NCBI GenBank assembly: GCA_964023275.1
Contig: OZ029929.1
Location: forward strand, 6,717,437 to 6,781,436
Length of the DNA: 64,000 nt
From: Norana najaformis
Lineage: Eukaryota > Annelida > Clitellata > Crassiclitellata > Hormogastridae
Direction: 5' to 3'
This document shows positions 3,356 to 50,480 of the stretch, one piece after another (the stretch's first letter is position 1; every line of letters begins with the position of its first letter). The translations under genes were made by a program, and so were the position numbers. The notes beneath the pieces were generated by a model. That model had not been told where the DNA came from and did no database searches. It saw only the letters and a list, made by a program, of their open reading frames with translations.

Positions 3356-3548
3356 CATGATTGCAATAAGTATTTCTCGTTTTCTTGTCTCCAGAAGTCA
3401 GTTTTTCTCAGCTCCATCGATAACTTTGTCACTTATCAATCACTCTGAACAGAATCCGGATAATCGCATCAGTAAGCAGGTCTCGGCCCTTAGTCCCTGG
3501 CACGAGTAGAAGCAGTTTTTGGCTGTTTGTAGCAGTCAAAAGGGATAA

Positions 3549-3666
3549 CACTGGCCAACACATAATTTGTTGCCTCAAATGTTAGAACTGTTTCTGGGTA
3601 TATTTGACCTGCTGATTCCAGAAAAGGCACCAGTTTTCTCCCAGCAGGTCTAGTTTTCGAGATATA
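3549..3666. repeat. Left terminal inverted repeat
   Basis: Pairs with 6218-6344. The first 12 nt are identical and the last ~18 nt nearly so; the middle is diverged and carries a poly-A/T length difference. Confidence 0.72.
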
Positions 3667-3864
3667 GAACATTATGCCATATACCAGTCCTTGCCTCTGC
3701 TCGCCCATAAAACATAAGGCTATAGCTATAATTATGTAGTGCTCAATTTATTATGTGATACACTAAATAAACATAATAATACAAATACTTAAAAGAAAAT
3801 GGTAGTACCTGAAACTGTACTTATATGATACCAAACAGAACAAGTTTGTTATAAAAATTTCAAG

Positions 3865-5567
3865 TCATTCGACACCGAAGAAGCTCCTTTTGTACGATTT
3901 CCGAGTGTGGCATCTGCCGGAACAATCGCGCATAATATTCCAGCAATAGTCTGCCATCTTTTGTGCATCCCATCTTCCTTGATATCGATTTTCCATTGTT
4001 TTGATGTCTTGGTGAAATCTTTCACCTTGCTCTTCGCTGAAGTCACCAAGATTCTCTGGAAAGCGATCTAAGTGACTGTGGAGATAATGGACTTTAATGC
4101 TCATGTTGCAGCCAAGCTTGTTGAAATGAAGAAGCATATCCTCTACTAGTTGTGCATAATTGTCTGCCTTCTTGTTGCCAAGAAAATTTTTAGTTACAAG
4201 AACAAAGGAAGACCAGGCACAAGATTCGATTTCATTCATTGATGGTATGAAAAGTGGGTCATTCATAAGTTGCCTGATCTGTGGACCATCGAAGATTCCA
4301 GCCTTCAATTTTTCCATTGTAATTCTTGGTAACTTGTGTACTATGTATTCGAAGCATGAACCTTCTTTATTCAAAGCCCTGACAAATTGTTTCATCAGGC
4401 CTAGCTTTATATGTAGTGGTGGCAGTATGATCCTATCTCGTGCCACCAAAGATTCCTTGATTACATTTTGAGCTCCAACCACCATGTCTTTCCTCGAAGG
4501 CCAATCTTTTCTTGTCCAATGTTCATGCTTGGCTCTACTGTCCCAAAGACACAAAAAGCAGGGATACTTTGTGTAGCCACTTTGTTGACCAAGGAGGAAA
4601 TTTACCATCTTCAAGTCTACACAAATTACCCATTGATGTTCTTTGTATTTTATCTTTTCCAGTACTAAAGAGATGGCATTGTACTCTTCTTTCATCCTGG
4701 TGGAGTGACCGATTGGAATAGAACCAAATTTGTTGCCATTATTTAAAAGCACACATTTCAGACTACGTTTTGAACTGTCGATAAAAGACGCCACTCATCT
4801 GGGCTGTAATCCGACAGACCAATTTTCTTCAATAAGTTGCTGATGTCATTACAGAATACTAGGTTGTTGTCTTCGATAAAGAATGGCAGCAAATCCTTTT
4901 CTCTGTTTCTATAAATTGTAATTCTCGTTCCAGGCTGAAGTGCATTCTTTTCCTTTAGTCTGGACGCAAGCAATTCAGAGGACTCTTTGGAAAGATATAA
5001 GTCCCTGATCAGATCACTCAACTCTTTTTGGTCAAAACGTTCACTGTGTGAAGTTGATTGGAAATCACTGTCACTGCCCCCACTTTCTTCACTTTCGTCA
5101 TCTTGTCCGATATTGGACATGCAAGTCTCATCGTCTGAGAGCTGAGGTAGTTCGCGAAAAGGTGGAACTGGTACAATATCCGAATGCGGAACAGGTCTCC
5201 TGGCTGAAGGTATATCAGGGTAAGACAACTTGTGACGATTATTTCGATTGATGCCTATGATATTAACCATACAAAAGTAACAGTCGTCGAAGTGGTTTAT
5301 CTGTTCCCTCCAAACCATCGGTACACCAAATTTCAGGCAGCTTCTCTTTCCAATTGTCCAGTGGCGCATTTGTTCAATACAAGTTTTGCATACTGTATGA
5401 GGAGCCCATTGCTTATCTTGATCTCCAAGTTTGACACCAAAATAACCTACATATGCTCTTTTTACAAACTCAGAAATCGGTTTCCTGTTTGCTTTTAGTG
5501 TGTATTCCCCACAAATGTAGCAGAATATGTCTGGATGGTTAATGCAGCTCCGTCTGGAAGTAGCCAT
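3865..5567 (-). pseudogene. Uncharacterised transposon-borne protein (cc8L18.2-like family), frameshifted
   Basis: Two minus-strand frames are read in succession: 5567 to about 4790 (N-terminal ~260 aa) and about 4794 to 3865 (C-terminal ~309 aa). The shift falls in a short T run on the coding strand at 4792-4796, consistent with loss of one base (mutation or assembly error). The N-terminal part has several Cys pairs (CYICGEYT, CKTC, CYFC) suggesting zinc binding, then an acidic Ser/Glu linker. The C-terminal part has IDSSKRSLKC, CVDLKMV, a CFLCLWD…HEHW motif and EEQGERFHQD. I recognise a family widespread and intronless in invertebrate genomes, annotated as uncharacterised or 'cc8L18.2-like'. 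Its placement between TIRs suggests a transposase, with conserved Asp/Glu in the C-terminal half as candidate catalytic residues. That function is inference. Confidence 0.7.
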
Positions 5568-6217
5568 AACCTTAAGGATGTTCGCATCTGAGGAATTAAA
5601 TGACTAACCTAAAAAATAGTAAGAACATGTAGTTATTTAATGCTCACATTCACAGATTGTTCTTGCGACCAACTCTTAATATGCCCTAATATGGTTTTTT
5701 GGTTTTTGAAAACTAATACTGTTGTATAAGTTTCATGTGTGATTTGGGAACTATTGTTTTAATTGTTATAAATTCTTATGGGCTCCAAACTTATGAATTG
5801 TCAGTTGATTGCGTTTTGCAGAAAACCTGCATGAACCTTAGAGAGAAAACTTTACATAGTTGAATAATGCGGCTGCTCTAGCTTTCAGGAGGCGGTTTAT
5901 ATAGGCTATAAATGCTGACTTCAGCATAATCTATTTACATAGTTCGAAACCATGAAACGCTGTATAAGCACAAATAAATTCTAAATGAGGCCATGAATTT
6001 AGTGCTGAGTAAGCTGTAGGCTACGGAATAGTTATTTCGTTGAATCAGCAATATCTCAGCACGCGGCAAGATATGCTGATTTTACATTATAAGGATGTAG
6101 GCATTATATGAATCAGCAAGAATTATAATTAGCCATAAATAAAGCTTATTATGACATTTTAGTTTTGCCAAAGACATCGTTTAAAGAGTGGACTGGGTTT
6201 TCTTTACAAAATCGACG
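5568..6217. other. Non-coding 5' part of the transposon
   Basis: AT-rich sequence between the minus-strand gene start and the right TIR. No open frame was recognised. It may hold the promoter of the element's gene. Confidence 0.5.
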
Positions 6218-6344
6218 ATATCTCAGAAACTAGACCTGATGCACTCAATCCAATGACATTTTCTGAATCAGCGCCCAAAATTACCCCAAGAACAGGTCTA
6301 AAACCGAAGCCAACAAGAAAAAAAAAATTTTCTGTTGGCCAGTG
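6218..6344. repeat. Right terminal inverted repeat
   Basis: Reverse complement partner of 3549-3666, ending …GTTGGCCAGTG and followed by TAA. Confidence 0.72.
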
Positions 6345-6639
6345 TAATAGGTCGAGCGCTGAGCCACTAATTGGAAGCATTCACACGAAAACAACCGCTT
6401 TGTCTCGAGCGCCGTAGGAAGGACCAGTTGGAGCAACTACTTTAGGCGACCATTCAACCCTTCTCCATTCTTCCATCATTCCTCCCTCCATTGTGTCTCT
6501 TTTCCAGTTGTCTTCTTTATCCGGCTCGTTGGTCGGTGCTAAATTGCAGCTATAAAAAGACTCATTTGGTAATGGTGATCAACAAGCTCACACGCTATGA
6601 TGCTATGGCTTCACTATGCTAACGACCACACTACGACGA

Positions 6640-32700: not shown

Positions 32701-35700
32701 CCAGTGTCCTTTCTTCTTGTACCAAGTGCAACATCTCCTCATTGGTTTTATAATCCTTCCAACTGATTTTGGTCTTCTCCATAGACTGGCCAAAATCAAT
32801 TGGAAAGATTATACCTGCACACACACTTACATATCCATGCATTTCACACTGGTACTACAAACAAATTTAATAAGAGATTTGACGGATTTTATAGTAAATT
32901 TCGAGTAAAAACAACAGAACTCAGGATGTAGAAGTGCAAAGGCCACAATGTCAATTCCACAACAGCAAGAAACTGCTCAAGAAACATTTTCCGCATATCA
33001 GAAGTACATGCTGCAGACTTCATCATCCTTCATCGAACCTCATGCTTGATGTGATTCAATCCAGGAATTGTGAACAACTCTGGATAGGAATCCATTTTTT
33101 GGGCTCTAAGGTTGTGCAGAACCTTGGTAGTAGTGACTTTTCTCAATATCTAAGATACTTTGATTATTTATGTAAGGTATTTTATGTAAGGTACTTAAAA
33201 GGCACCATAATAAGTATTCAGACACATATAATGGACATGTACACACCTACACATATATACAAACCTACATATTCATACATGCCCACACATACATACACAC
33301 CCACACATACATACATACACACCCACACATACATACATACCTACATGCACATACCACTGGTACATGCCTATACAGACCTACACACAAACATACCAAGACA
33401 CATACATACCTGCACACGTACTTACATATGCATACATATTTACACATACATATATACCTACACATAAATACACATGCATCTACACATGCATACATAAGTC
33501 ACACACCTTTTTAGACTGATCAGATAGCAATGTTTCAGTGACTTTGACAGAATCCTAACTGGCACTGCATAAATATCCATATAATACATTTATGTCTTTT
33601 TATAAAAACAGGTGAAGATGGGTTTGTCTTGCATTTACAACAAAAACTGATTAATTCAAACGAACCAGAACCTCAGCATAATGACTAAGTGGTGCGGTTT
33701 TATTGCTAATTTTTTTATTGTTTTATTGCTAAGCATTAGCAATTGTGACTTACCATAAGCATACTGAAGTCTGGGGCATGACCTGTCATGCCAAAAACAG
33801 TTGTCTTCAGATATTTCTCGTGTCCTGCAAGATCTATAAATGTTATCACCTGCAGAAAAGTAAAAATGCAACAGAACAAATGAACTGATTCCTGTAAAAG
33901 AATTTAAGTCCAATCACAATAAAACTGAACTCTAAGCAAGGTAGACAAAAATTTCAATCATATTACGTTACATAATATTACAATTAAGTAATGTTATGCA
34001 ATTGTTTTCAACTGCATAAAAATGACATATCACGACTAATTACAGTATGTGCCAGACATGGTAACATTTTCAAAAAGTCCAAGCTAGTCAAGATTTCCGT
34101 AATGTAATGTCGCTGGACAGTCACACAGCACTTGGTCTGAGGCCCTAATTGATGACAACATTTACATAATATTGCTGAACACGATAAATAGCATATACAT
34201 TACAAAACATTACACACAGTAAATTCTGTAGTTTTAATTTTCAAACAATCATAATCTAGCTGAGGTTCAATAAAGCAATTTACCAGGGTCAAGTCTAATT
34301 TAATAGCGAATTTATATAGCACCCCATCCGTAAATGTGCTCAGATTCACTACACTTTGTAAAGCACTGAATTAACTAATGAAAAAAGAACTTTAATCCAT
34401 ATCTTGATACAGGAGTCACACAGCACAAGTCACCAGTTGATCACAATGATTATTATTATGATGAGCAGTCGTATGTAATCATTCATGCATCTAGATAGTT
34501 ACAGTAACTTTTAAATGTAAATGTACATGGTTTTATATAGCAACTGTATGGCCTCGACCCTGTTCATTTTGGAATGAACTGGTCGGGTGAGATCCTTCAC
34601 TGTGCCCCGTTTGAATGAGCTTCAGTACAGTCAAGGAAAAGCGCCATATAAGTCTGCAATACCCCAGTCTCTACAAGGTGACCATCTTACTGGTAGCGTC
34701 AACCGTCAGTCTAAATTACATGGCAAACATCGACACAACCCATGTCACCAAACTGCACACTGCTATATCAAATTAAACACACGGTTAGTCTGATGCCAAC
34801 CTTAGTTGACTTTTCGCAGATCTTGACCCAGTCGAGGTTTCCGTGCTCTGGTTTGTTGACGATCTTCCCTTGGCTGTCAAAGCCAAGAATGTCGTTGCCA
34901 ACGCTGCTCGTTCGGCCAGATTCCATCTCATGCTTGTGGCGAAAGAGCTTCTGTCGAGCGTATCCACGTCCATTGTCGAGTTCTGTATGAGTAAGCACGC
35001 CCAGTAACGTACTCTTCCCAGCATCTACGTTGCCCACGACTGCCACTCTAACAAACGGCAAAATATAGTAACACTATATAGCCTAATCACAAAGTCAGTC
35101 TGTTATCTGAACATTTACACAGTACCTTATATAGAGCAACGTGCCACTTTATCGTACATGATCAAGTGTGTGTTAATAAAGCTACTGAGAGGTTCTTACA
35201 AGGCACTGCATAAGTTAATATGCATACAGCTAAGAACCTCTTGAAAGCATTGATCACAAGCTAAAGGTTAACGTACCATAACACACTGCTCCTTAGTAAA
35301 GTGCACTTTGCCAAGTATTGTTATACTAAAAGATCAGTCCCTTAAGCTAACCAAGACAAGCAGCTACTGATGTGAATTGTTACCAACTTCATTTTCTAAC
35401 CCTCAGCACATGAGGGCACTTAGCCAGTCCTCTCCCTCACCATGTGATCTTTCTTCTGACAAATAATGGTCAGCCTAATGTAATGTAATGTAACAAGCAT
35501 TTATATAGCGCCATTCAAGAATCTCTCAAAAGCACGTTCACATGGCTATCCAAACGACCTAAACAAGTGCATCTTCAGGTGAACAGAAAATGAATGCCAA
35601 GTTAAACCGAGGTAAAGAGCGAATGTAGTACTAATATGATAGCTGAGTTCACAATAGGGCACAAGTGGGGCAGAAATTTCAAATATCTTTCTGCCCTAGC

Positions 35701-37607
35701 ACGAATTTGAATCAGCAACCTAAGGGTTGTCAATCCAGCATACTAACAAACAGACTACTGGGGACATTTAGAAAGCATTAAGCATAACAGCACAAACCAA
35801 TTGCTACCATGTCATGCTAGAGCGATCATCTTGCCTTAGTTGATACCAATCTCTTTAAAATCCTCTCTACCTCACTTCCATGAAGTCCTTCTCCTCGGCC
35901 CGCACTCGCACCAGAAGCTCAGCAACCGTTCCACTCTCTTCATGATGCCGTCGCAATTCAACGCACTCAGCATTGAGACTTTGCGCCATGCTCTGTAGAG
36001 TAGCAATTGATGCATGGAGATCATCATTGCTTAATCCTGGTGCATCACTCTCTGCACAGGAGAACAAAACAGAGGATAAAGACGATGCACAGTTTGAAAC
36101 AGTCATTGTAATTAACATAATCATCATCGTCATCATCATCATCATCATCATCATCATCGTGACCATTTTATAGCCATAATTGACAATAATCATATAGTCA
36201 TTTGGTATGACTCACACTAAGTATCACTACAATCATCATAAATCTAATTTACTTTGGAAACTGCTATAATGCCATCATTGTAATGCACAAGCCATCATCA
36301 ATGGTCGCTACTAGTCAAGAAGTAAGTATGTATCTGGATATCTATATAGCACCTTTCAAGAACCTCACAAATGAGCTGTAAGGTTCTAAAAGCATTCGAT
36401 TTCGATTCAATACCATCAACATAACATAAAATGTCCATAAAAGTGGCATATTTAAACCGGGTATAATGGATGCAAGTCTCTCCCAGTCTGAGACATTTTG
36501 CCTAATTATTTAATTACATCACCACAGACCAAACTATTCTCTTCACCTGCTCTAACTTCAAATCTTGTTATCTACCAACCTTGACCTGGCAAGGATGGAA
36601 TCCTAAGCAAAGACTAAAACCTTGACTGTCAGAAACCAGCCCTAATCAGCAAATCAGGAATCACCTTCAAGATCAGTGATCAACAGCTCATGAAAAAACT
36701 TACCTCCGATGCCAATAGTGTAGATTGCTTCAGCCTGATTCTCATGCAGCCTCTCACGCAGCCTTGCAAGAAGCGTTTCATACTCTTCATCGGTCGGACT
36801 TACCAGAGCATTCTAGAATTTAAAAACCACCATAATGGAGACAGTTGTAGGCAAGCAGATACAGTAACTGTAAATGTACTCAGTTTTTAACAGTGACCTG
36901 ATGGCCTCAACTCTGGTCATTTTTCAATGAATTAATCGGGTGAGATCCTTCACCACCGCTGTCAGTTTGATTTGGCACTTTATAAATTTCTGTTAAATAC
37001 ACTAGTTCTTGAAATTGCTCCAATATAAATGTCGTTATTTTTCTCTCAGAAGGTAAGTAAACTTAGAACTTAAATGTTTAAACTGTTACATAATATTGCA
37101 TCATTTTTTAAAATAATACTGTTCTTTATTACTGTTTTGTATGCAGTGATCTTTGTAAAGTGTGGATTTGCACTAATAAAGATATACTTGCCTACTTACT
37201 TAAGCAAAACAGGTGTGTGTATGCCAAAACCCAGTCAGTGTGGTTTGAAATACAACTGGGTAATCCACACACACAGGAAAACATCCTATGTCAGAAAATG
37301 CTAGGATAATATTTGTATGCGCATGTGTACTTGCTTGAGCATCACTCACTTATGAACACAGAGGACAGAAAGATCAGAGCTGCTCTCTGGAGAGATTCTA
37401 GCAACAGGCCTCTGTAAACAAATCCTATTTCTTTGCCTACATTGCACTGACCCAGATCTTTGTGCATACCTTGTGATTAACATGGCCCAATTCCATGTCC
37501 TCAATTTCAACATCTTCGTCATCTTCTGTGTTGTCGCCTGGCTCGAAAAGGCTGTTCATTTCTGTTGAAATTCTGGGATCATCCACATCCATTCCTCCAG
37601 TAGCCAT
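29701..37607 (-). CDS. GTPBP1: GTP-binding protein 1 (GTPBP1), complete ten-exon gene
   Basis: Coding exons on the minus strand, in order: 37607-37470, 36812-36704, 36051-35871, 35047-34801, 33849-33754, 32388-32150, 31927-31783, 31242-31060, 30634-30499, 30122-29701. Together they are 1,896 nt, divisible by three, giving 631 aa (human GTPBP1 is about 669). Every junction has GT/AG ends and matching phase. Motifs: acidic N-terminal region; P-loop GNVDAGKS (148-155); DLAGHEK at 231; TKID (287-290); [13 protein letters not shown] starting the EF-Tu-like beta-barrel; [32 protein letters not shown]; a basic C-terminal tail. Family knowledge: an eEF1A-like translational GTPase that delivers aminoacyl-tRNA and influences mRNA decay with the exosome. 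HHPTTI and [10 protein letters not shown] favour GTPBP1 over GTPBP2. The donor after exon 4 (gttggc) is weak. Confidence 0.96.
32440..32842 (-). pseudogene. RTE/jockey-like LINE ORF C-terminal fragment
   Basis: The minus strand reads [18 protein letters not shown], then, after a break, a GRPRKM-type segment and [16 protein letters not shown] end. The same sequence occurs in plus sense at 53148-53405. It lies in the GTPBP1 intron between exons 33754 and 32388. Confidence 0.65.
33225..33495. repeat. ACAT/ACAC microsatellite
   Basis: Follows a retroelement tail 'acttaaaaggcaccataataag' at 33193. Intronic. Confidence 0.85.
34514..34660 (-). mobile_element. SINE family T fragment
   Basis: Minus-sense match to the family described at 41655: gtgaggatctcaccc-type core (here gggtgagatccttcac) and tail TACATTTACATTTA. 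GTPBP1 intron. Confidence 0.65.
35475..35770 (-). mobile_element. tRNA-derived SINE sharing the LINE-C tail, apparently near full length
   Basis: On the minus strand, the head (about 35770-35690) has a tRNA-like A box (TTAGTATGCTGG) and B box (GGTTGCTGATTCAAAT). The body ends GAGATTCTTGAATGGCGCTATATAAAT plus (ACATT)n. That terminus resembles the LINE-C end at 39100-39130. GTPBP1 intron. Confidence 0.6.
36123..36165. repeat. ATC trinucleotide repeat
   Basis: (ATC)n in a GTPBP1 intron. Confidence 0.9.
36856..36992 (-). mobile_element. SINE family T fragment
   Basis: Shares gtaaatgta…tgatggcctcaactctggtcat and atcgggtgagatccttcac with the copy at 34514. Confidence 0.65.
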
Positions 37608-41654: not shown

Positions 41655-41900
41655 AATGCGTGCTCCAAGGAGCCTCTATGTGTGAGAATCCCCGGTTCGC
41701 GTCTCGATCGTGGCTTATTTCAGACATTTAAATCTCGGGCTGGTACATGGGGACCTTAAATGGCGTCGCTCCCATTCAAACAGGCAGCCGTGATGAAGGA
41801 TCTCACTCGATAAATTCATTGCAGAATGCACAGGGTCGAGGTCATACGGTCGCTTTCTAAACTTATACCTTTACATGTACATTTACAGTTAGCAGGAATG
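41655..41900 (+). mobile_element. SINE family T (tRNA-derived), long copy
   Basis: The head contains a B-box-like CCGGTTCGCGTCTCGATC. The body is taaatctcggg…accttaaatggcg…gaaggatctcactcgataaattcattg…gtcgaggtcatacggtcgct, with a tail of TTTACATGTACATTTAC. Other copies are at 34514, 36856, 48555 and 50195, with a short match at 1914. Confidence 0.65.
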
Positions 41901-44570: not shown

Positions 44571-45284
44571 TCAAATACCATACAATACAATTAAATTGGT
44601 TAGTTTTATGTGCGCATGCGTGTCTCTGTTGCAACCGAAGAACCTCCGTCGTCATCATTTTTTAATTAAATTATCGGGTGATGTTGCCTCACTCCCGGCC
44701 ACTGCCAGTTTTACTGGGTGCCAATCCAGCTTAGGTCACCATGCATAGACCATACCAGCCGGAGATGGAAACCTCTGAAGTATAGCCATGATTGGTATTC
44801 GAATAGGTATTCCTCTTACACAGAGGCGTCTTGCTGTCACCATCGGTGCCAGTTAGTGGTAAGAACTGGAAGCGATTGTATTCATAAACTTCATACCATA
44901 TTGTCCATCCTTCATTTGATGTTAGTATTTATTTTGTGAGTGTTCATGTTTTTCATGGTCTAAAGTCTTTTATGGTTCCGATAAATAATGATTATTGTGC
45001 CGTTTGTGACAGTTATATTGTCCGATAATGTATATACGTACGTTCAAGTAAATCGCTCTACCACGTCGTACTGAATCTTACCGTATCATGTGCGATTTTA
45101 CTGTTTTGGTTAACGGGGCACTGATGAAATCCAGAAGCCAAAGGTGCTTGCGTCATTCACCAGACTCCAGGGTCATTTGGTTAACCCCTAGTTATGATGA
45201 CTCCAGTATCCTACTGTCAGAAGTCATAAATAAATGCGTAAATAAAAATATAGAGCTAGAAAGGTGTCTTACAGATACACGCAT

Positions 45285-45396
45285 ACATGCATGCATGAAT
45301 TCATACATACGTACAAACATACATACACACACGTACGTACATGCATGCTTGAATTCATACATATATATAAACATACATACATACACACATACATAC
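45285..45396. repeat. ACAT/ACGT microsatellite
   Basis: (ACAT)n with CATGCATG interruptions. It ends exactly where the LINE-B reverse transcriptase begins. Confidence 0.85.
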
Positions 45397-46440
45397 ACCT
45401 GTGGCGTTCCACAAGGCTCAGTGTTGGGTCCCCTCCTCTTCTTATTATACACGGCCGATGTGGAGAGAATTATACAAGCGCATGGACTCCTTCACCACTG
45501 CTATGCGGATGATACACAGCTTTACTTCTTCTGTGAGCCATCAGAAACCGCTGAGCTGAAACAGAGAGTGATGCTGTGTATCGAGCGCATTTCAGAGTGG
45601 ATGGCGTCCAACCGCCTCAGACTTAATTCATCAAAGTCTGACTTTCTATGGTGCACCACCCTCCGACGTCGCCATCTACTCGACGACAGTACCTTTGCCC
45701 TCGGTGATGCCGAAGTTCGACCAGCTGACACCATTCGCAACCTTGGGGTCCGCTTTGACAGCTGCATGACCATGTCGGCCCATGTGAATCAACTTGTACG
45801 AGGTTGCTTCTATCAGTTGCGTCGCATCAAATCGATCCGCAGATTCATTCCCACCTCAACCGCTGTCACTCTGGTCAACAGTTTCATCGTCTCCAGGGTT
45901 GATTACTGCAATAGCCTGCTGGCAGGTCTGCCGACTTGTCAGCTAGAGCGGATACAGTCAGTGCTAAACTCTGCTGCCCGCCTCATCTATGGTCGGACAC
46001 CATTCAATCACGTCACTGATCTGCTGCGCGACAACCTGCACTGGTTGCGTATTCCTCAGCGGATCACCTACAAACTGTGCCTAATTACATACAAGGCTCT
46101 TAATGGTCTTCTACCAGACTATATATCCGACTTCTGTATTCGAACAGCCGACAATCAGAACACATATCAGCTACGGTCCTCATCGAGGAATCAACTGCAT
46201 GTCCCGCTTTCTTCCACGAAGTTCGGCGAACGTTCCTTCACTGTCGCCGGACCCACTGCGTGGAACAGTCTTCCTGAGAATGTGACGAATGCCCCATCGC
46301 TGGACACATTCAAGTCACGACTCAAGACACATCTTTTTAGGATATCTTATGACTGCAGTTGATTTTGAACCCTTGTACAGCGCCCTTTTCTTCGGCCTCG
46401 GCTGTGCTACGGCGCTATATAAATTGTCTTATTATTATTA
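45397..46440 (+). pseudogene. LINE family B reverse transcriptase, 5'-truncated
   Basis: About 320 codons remain open (stop at 46360-46362), from CGVPQGSVLGPLLF (RT block 4) through the catalytic YADD in CYADDTQLYF, the thumb region, HWLRIPQRITYK and GPTAWNSLPENV to FKSRLKTHLF. This order is typical of L2/CR1-like ORF2. The endonuclease and RT blocks 1-3, including the first catalytic Asp, are missing, so it is dead. The frame runs on upstream through the microsatellite only by chance. The 3' end is GGCGCTATATAAATTGTC then (TTA)n. The near-identical copy at 38368 implies recent activity of the family. Confidence 0.9.
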
Positions 46441-48554: not shown

Positions 48555-48712
48555 GGGAGTCCGAACACGGGAACCTTAAATGGCGTGGCGCCCCAAACGG
48601 GCAGCGATGGTGAAGGATCTCACCCGACGAATTCATTGAAAAATGAGCAAGGTCGAGACCATAAGGTCGCTATGGAAAAACTATACATTTACATTTACGG
48701 GACAATGGAGAG
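48555..48712 (+). mobile_element. SINE family T fragment
   Basis: cacgggaaccttaaatggcg … gaaggatctcacccgac … ggtcgctatgg, with tail TACATTTACATTTAC. Confidence 0.7.
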
Positions 48713-50194: not shown

Positions 50195-50480
50195 GCCGGT
50201 TCGCATACCGACAGTGGCTATATTTCAAAGATTTTAATCTCGGACTAGCTCGGTCCGTACACGGGAACCTTAAATACTTCATGAAATATGCCAATCTATA
50301 AACAACCATTATATGAGTATCAATATGCATGTGTGTTTATGTAATGTATACTATATATTAATAATAGTGTAATATATTTAATGGCGTGGCGTCCATTCAG
50401 AGGGGCAGCGGTGTTGACGTCTCTCGCCCGATTAATTCACTGAAAAATGAGCCACACGGTCGCTATAGAGAAACTTGTAA
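50195..50480 (+). mobile_element. SINE family T, interrupted by an insertion
   Basis: The head has ccggttcgcataccgac. The body breaks after gggaaccttaaat (50275) and resumes at aatggcgtggcg (about 50381); about 105 nt is inserted. Confidence 0.65.

What the first reader, a model, noticed from the sequence alone, without database searches (positions are those of the whole stretch)
3549..6344. A complete TIR-bounded DNA transposon built around an uncharacterised invertebrate gene family
Seen: identical CACTGGCCAACA ends in inverted orientation, similarity extending about 120 nt inward on both sides, TAA directly outside both ends, and only one gene inside. Known: proteins of this 'cc8L18.2-like' type are scattered, intronless and multicopy in invertebrates without an agreed function. 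Inference: the protein is the transposase of a distinct DNA-transposon group with long imperfect TIRs and a 3-bp TWA-like duplication.
Basis: partly seen in the sequence, partly recalled or inferred. Interest (0 to 1): 0.78.

Follow-up and report, generated by a model that had tools for sequence, protein, structure and literature searches.

The report
Young transposon with RAG1-like transposase
This is a copy of a recently active animal jumping gene whose enzyme, so far unnamed in protein databases, is predicted to be built like the RAG1 enzyme that rearranges antibody genes, so it adds an abundant, testable relative to that enzyme group.

The parts
3549..6344 (-). Whole transposon copy, 2796 bp, gene on the minus strand
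   Evidence: About 97-99.8% identical to 36 other copies over its aligned blocks
3546..3548 (.). Target-site duplication, left copy (TAA)
   Evidence: 35 of 37 copies have identical 3-bp flanks
6345..6347 (.). Target-site duplication, right copy (TAA)
3549..3674 (+). Left terminal inverted repeat: 12 identical nt, then imperfect to about 125 nt
   Evidence: measured in sister copy L044 and carried over
6215..6344 (-). Right terminal inverted repeat, imperfect, about 130 nt
   Evidence: measured in sister copy L044 and carried over
4758..5567 (-). N-terminal part of the transposase gene (two CxxC pairs weakly like zf-AD, acidic linker, up to just before the first catalytic Asp)
   Evidence: Pfam zf-AD below its cut-off, E 0.006 in P0003, 18 of 40 members at E<=1
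3865..4794 (-). C-terminal part of the transposase gene (catalytic core), in another frame because of a one-base frameshift
   Evidence: uninterrupted 567-aa ORF in 15 of 37 copies
4777..4779 (-). Codon of first catalytic Asp (D264 of P0003)
   Evidence: 155 of 155 homologues; role inferred
4615..4617 (-). Codon of second catalytic Asp (D318)
   Evidence: 155 of 155; role inferred
4549..4560 (-). C337-x2-C340, predicted zinc ligands
   Evidence: 155 of 155; spacing from D318 as in RAG1 D708-C727-C730
4072..4089 (-). H494-x4-H499, predicted zinc ligands
   Evidence: 154 and 155 of 155; RAG1 H937-x4-H942
4021..4023 (-). Codon of probable catalytic Glu (E516)
   Evidence: 154 of 155; matches the SEExxE pattern of HzTransib; assignment inferred, E513 is the alternative (155 of 155)
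5690..5867 (.). 178 nt present only in this copy in place of about 6 nt
   Evidence: origin unknown

Best explanation
The feature is one damaged copy of a young, high-copy, cut-and-paste DNA transposon. Intact copies encode a 567-aa transposase: an N-terminal zinc module, an acidic linker and a RAG1/Transib-type DDE domain with a C2H2 zinc site inserted between the second Asp and the Glu. The enzyme most likely binds the CAC-beginning inverted ends as a dimer, excises the element, and inserts it into ATWAT sites with staggered cuts that leave a 3-bp duplication. Shown: ends, copies, duplications, target preference, unoccupied paralogous sites for one insertion, conserved residues, predicted fold. 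Inferred: catalysis, which Glu is used, zinc binding, dimerisation, and hairpin formation on the flanking DNA as in RAG1 and Transib. It fits the CMCT clade by fold, motifs, ends and duplication length; its rank inside that clade is unresolved.
Confidence: 0.9

Rival explanations
1. It is simply a divergent animal branch of the CACTA/EnSpm superfamily, perhaps already filed in Repbase as EnSpm, that only lacks a Pfam model. It would work in the same way.
For: CAC..GTG ends and 3-bp duplications are what PMC12730594 called consistent with filing fungal families as EnSpm. C(2)C and H(4)H motifs fit. That paper reports only weak sequence similarity between some of its families and EnSpm.
Against: No Transposase_21 (PF02992) match in 40 members at E<=1, though a strongly diverged one would be missed. 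The described animal CACTA relatives (TRC) have CCC ends, 2-bp duplications and a Transposase_21 domain, unlike this one.
Confidence: 0.5
2. A PIF/Harbinger-type element, suggested by the TWA duplication.
For: TAA/TTA duplications; canonical Harbinger gives 3-bp duplications.
Against: The best fold matches by a wide margin are RAG1 chains; no DDE family of Pfam matches 40 members at E<=1; in the three intact copies searched on both strands the 567-aa gene is the only ATG-started ORF of 80 aa or more, so no second Myb-like gene was seen.
Confidence: 0.02
3. A domesticated host gene or tandem gene family that happens to lie between inverted repeats.
For: The protein family is strongly conserved across animals.
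Against: Over a thousand copies of the ends, per-site 3-bp duplications, unoccupied sites and near-identical copies in mostly unrelated flanks.
Confidence: 0.01
4. The element is a passenger: its ends are moved by some other transposase, and the protein inside has another role.
For: The window copy's own gene is frameshifted, and no binding of the ends by the protein has been shown.
Against: 15 of 37 copies encode the full-length protein between the same ends and its predicted fold is that of a transposase. The window copy alone may well now depend on proteins from other copies.
Confidence: 0.07

Closest known systems
Transib transposons and RAG1 (HzTransib, BbRAGL, vertebrate RAG1)
   Same: Predicted fold over about 350-370 residues, D/D/E with a C2H2 zinc site at the same D-C-C and H-H spacings as RAG1; ends beginning CAC as in the RAG signal and Transib (recalled)
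   Different: 3-bp A/T-rich duplication instead of Transib's 5 bp (5 bp is recalled); no sequence-level similarity found; ends continue CACTGGCC rather than the Transib/RSS heptamer (recalled)
CACTA/EnSpm
   Same: CAC..GTG ends (CACTG here), 3-bp duplication, C(2)C and H(3-4)H motifs
   Different: No Transposase_21 domain detected; a single gene in one frame with no other ORF of 80 aa or more in the three intact copies checked on both strands
SmTRC1 / TRC animal CACTA-related elements
   Same: Animal elements related to CACTA
   Different: TRC has CCC ends, 2-bp duplication, Transposase_21 (abstract and section 6 of PMC1636069)
Plavaka, ESTA, Lanisha, Chapaev, Mirage
   Same: Members of the same CMCT clade by motif definition (passages of PMC12730594)
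   Different: Plavaka ends TGT or CATCA, ESTA TA duplications; Chapaev 4 bp and Mirage 2 bp duplications (recalled); Lanisha not compared

Membership tests
CMCT clade (EnSpm-Mirage-Chapaev-Transib and kin) | DDE core with C(2)C and H(3-4)H between second D and E | tested here: met
   D264, D318, C337xxC340, H494x4H499, E516 in 154-155 of 155 proteins; criterion from passages
CMCT clade (EnSpm-Mirage-Chapaev-Transib and kin) | CA..TG termini (in most cases) and 2-5 bp duplication | tested here: met
   CAC..GTG, 3 bp in 35 of 37
CMCT clade (EnSpm-Mirage-Chapaev-Transib and kin) | RAG1/Transib-type fold | tested here: met
CMCT clade (EnSpm-Mirage-Chapaev-Transib and kin) | Detectable sequence homology to a member | tested here: inconclusive
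   hhalign with single RAG1/Transib fragments found nothing; no CMCT alignment could be obtained because the genome search did not complete
CACTA/EnSpm | CACTA-like ends and 3-bp duplication | tested here: met
   CACTG ends, 3 bp
CACTA/EnSpm | Transposase_21 domain (PF02992) recognisable by Pfam scan | tested here: not met
   No match at E<=1 in 40 members; this is Pfam's sensitivity only
CACTA/EnSpm | Position inside EnSpm in a CMCT tree | not tested
   No EnSpm sequences were obtained
Transib | 5-bp duplication (recalled) | tested here: not met
   3 bp; 0 of 37 with even 4 identical bp
TRC | CCC ends and 2-bp duplication | tested here: not met
   CAC ends, 3 bp
PIF/Harbinger | 3-bp TWA duplication | tested here: met
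   TAA/TTA in 23 of 34 independent sites; that TWA is typical of Harbinger is recalled
PIF/Harbinger | Harbinger-type DDE nuclease domain | tested here: inconclusive
   No Pfam DDE family matches 40 members at E<=1; no direct comparison with a Harbinger transposase was made

The most novel reading that the evidence does not exclude
The family is a separate, superfamily-level lineage of RAG1-like transposons, widespread across animals (cnidarian, beetles, lizard, frog, bat and the window species), with TWA targeting and its own N-terminal zinc module, spread partly by horizontal transfer and still active, that sequence-based classification has missed because the core cannot be linked to RAG1 or CACTA by sequence.
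Probability: 0.4. Interest if true: 0.78.

Novelty: new variant of a known kind. Interest (0 to 1): 0.62.

Why it matters
About two thousand 90%-identity protein clusters answered each of two searches (2101 and 1982, overlapping); the 120 best listed in each carry no Pfam domain and no functional name. Identifying them as RAG1/Transib-fold transposases would let genomes be annotated correctly. It also gives a compact, apparently recently active RAG1-like enzyme whose element carries no second gene in the copies checked, useful for asking how such enzymes evolved their target choice and duplication length. The near-identical intact copies make a direct transposition test feasible.

Tried and rejected
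Rejected: host gene family, PIF/Harbinger, chance inverted repeat (see rivals).

Led nowhere: viral-contig scans with P0003, A1 and P0122 and genome-contig scans with A1 and P0100 confirmed no encoding locus (29, 76), so ends in other species could not be checked. Paper searches for the gene name, the end sequence and the family showed no title or abstract opening that describes this element; most listed papers were not opened, long lists were shown in part (20 of 731, 25 of 49, 20 of 43), only open-licence papers are held, and Repbase is not. PHROGs and NCBIfam gave nothing. Rfam found nothing at gathering threshold in the window. Sequence profiles do not reach RAG1 or Transib. No Harbinger- or CACTA-labelled chain appears among the rows shown by the fold searches, which excludes nothing. 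Whole-genome searches beyond did not complete, so total full-length copies, short derivatives, the source of the 178-nt segment, more empty sites and a comparison with the genome's own Transposase_21 elements were not obtained. Of 26 unpaired 12-mer hits in the list, 19 were probed at the hit and in a 181-base stretch about 2.6 kb away: 3 of 19 had a recognisable far end, 2 of those 3 with matching TAA; the other 16 may be truncated, internally deleted or, where the end does not continue past the 12-mer (three rows), chance matches; the script's TSD flags on two low-scoring rows are noise. The other 7 hits (three in L045, two in L046, L047, L048) were aligned to the element: L046, L047 and L048 are nearly complete with one damaged end, those in L045 belong to partial copies. 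One exact pair in the list, near C1:4027286, was cut off by the fetched stretch and not examined.

Full report
The window lies in a 608-Mb genome of 17 contigs (G000:C17:6717437-6781436).

Observation. The two ends, the TAA flanks and the extended end similarity are present as described. The exact 12-mer appears nowhere else in the window, but 1561 times forward and 1295 times reverse in the genome, against 13 and 12 for the pattern read backwards. Of the 100 places listed (my count; all on contig C1), 74 form 37 facing pairs; I read 36 of these pairs with 500-base flanks, plus the window copy. The usual length is about 2625 bp; two of the 36 are shorter (2321 and 1884 bp). 35 of 37 have identical 3-bp flanks (chance 0.017 per site); the two exceptions are L010 (CTA/TTA) and L016 (TTA/TAA). 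After leaving out one duplicated locus (L022), the 34 sites with matching flanks read TAA 13, TTA 10, others 11; the five-base context is ATAAT 11 and ATTAT 10; no copy of 37 shows a 4-bp match. The selection favoured copies with two perfect ends, so these rates describe well-preserved copies. Of 26 unpaired hits, 19 were probed and 3 of these had a recognisable far end at the expected distance; the rest are described under Tried and rejected.

Age and autonomy. The 34 copies of near-standard length differ from one another by 0.9% on average, 1.6% at most, gaps not counted. 15 of 37 have an uninterrupted 567-codon gene; 18 of 37 have an ORF over 500 aa. Of the 15, 12 keep all nine motif residues checked, two have D264E and one C337Y, so full length is not the same as function. 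The window copy's gene is split by a one-base frameshift just before the first catalytic Asp, and 178 nt replace about 6 nt at 5690-5867. Uninterrupted copies exist elsewhere in the genome.

Empty sites. The insertion in L021 (and its duplicate L022) sits in a dispersed repeat that also occurs in the window. With the element and one TTT removed, the joined L021 flanks align continuously over the junction at window 48566-48698, 41742-41881, 36864-36961 and 34512-34620, 73-77% identical. These are paralogous, not allelic, empty sites, and the target letters themselves vary among them. A fifth match (50377-50450) reaches only seven bases to the left of the junction. This is one insertion event; flanks of the other 35 copies gave no junction-spanning match in the sequence held.

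The protein. A search with the 567-aa protein of L044 gave 2101 proteins at E<=0.001, of which the best 120 are listed; these 120 have no Pfam domain, and names, where given, are 'hypothetical', 'uncharacterized' or 'unnamed'. A second search from a distant member (P0122) gave 1982, again with no Pfam domain among the 120 listed. Named sources include Hydra, the beetles Pyrocoelia, Callosobruchus and Onthophagus, the lizard Rhineura, the frog Ranitomeya and the bat Saccopteryx. In a tree of 40 of the proteins, the lizard and Hydra proteins are sisters (support 100/97, 77% identical) and two firefly proteins fall in separate branches. That suggests several lineages per genome and possible horizontal transfer, but contamination and host-gene controls were not tested.

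Active site. Across 155 proteins, D264, D318, C337, C340, H499, E513 and H519 are invariant, and H494 and E516 are conserved in 154. These proteins are the best hits of two searches, so the sample is narrow. Mouse RAG1 has D600, D708, E962 and a zinc site of C727, C730, H937, H942 (passages of PMC4914335; both segments checked against PDB chains). The spacings D-19-C, C-3-C and H-5-H are the same in both proteins; the spacing from the second His to the Glu is 20 in RAG1 and 17 here, and the longer loops differ. HzTransib reads SEEASEARNKDF where this protein reads SEEQGERFHQDI, which points to E516 as the catalytic Glu; this is inference. Against this, hhalign and hmmsearch find no sequence-level similarity, with shallow profiles (Neff about 2.3) and single-sequence targets.

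Comparison. Passages of PMC12730594 describe a CMCT clade (EnSpm/CACTA, Mirage, Chapaev, Transib, Plavaka, ESTA, Lanisha, with RAG1) by C(2)C and H(3-4)H motifs, mostly CA..TG ends and 2-5 bp duplications. All are met here. EnSpm is suggested by CAC..GTG and 3 bp, but no Transposase_21 match was found. The animal TRC elements differ in ends and duplication (abstract and section 6 of PMC1636069; passages of PMC4298943). Transib, Chapaev and Mirage differ in duplication length (recalled values). I therefore file it as a new variant of a known kind: a CMCT-clade transposon family of unresolved rank. The paper searches made showed no description of it in their listings, most of which I did not open; Repbase may list it under EnSpm.

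Noticed in passing
L045 (G000:C1:4019700-4029699): Several partial copies of the element (about 660 bases of one end, others longer) repeat in one orientation about every 2.3-2.4 kb; three of them share a flank with the complete copy in L017, so a locus holding a copy was probably amplified in tandem.
   Followed up: partly
L046, bases 515-560: One copy sits directly at the TAA inside the terminal repeat of another copy (the older end is cut at CATAA), apparently a self-insertion; its far end has lost 13 bases.
   Followed up: partly
L021 and L022 (G000:C1:7783317-7786945 and 7808104-7811732): Two copies about 25 kb apart share flanks at 99% and 95% identity, so the insertion probably predates a segmental duplication.
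   Followed up: no
window 34512-34620, 36864-36961, 41742-41881, 48566-48698, 50377-50450: Dispersed repeat family in the window that serves as unoccupied target sites for L021/L022; identity of the repeat unknown.
   Followed up: no
window 45088-46362 (+): 424-aa ORF whose later part looks like a non-LTR retrotransposon reverse transcriptase fragment (GVPQGSVLGPLLF..YADDTQ, judged by eye), with a TACA-type repeat stretch near its start.
   Followed up: no
window 5690-5867: 178 nt found in none of the 36 other copies read, in place of about 6 nt; no other match in the window and loci held then.
   Followed up: partly
P0147 (Saccopteryx leptura) and P0151 (Ranitomeya imitator): Vertebrate members of the family; the bat protein carries an extra C-terminal tail of about 100 residues and could be a captured or domesticated copy.
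   Followed up: no
L009, L012 and L036: Full-length ORFs with a changed motif residue (D264E in L009 and L012, C337Y in L036), so some uninterrupted copies may be inactive.
   Followed up: no
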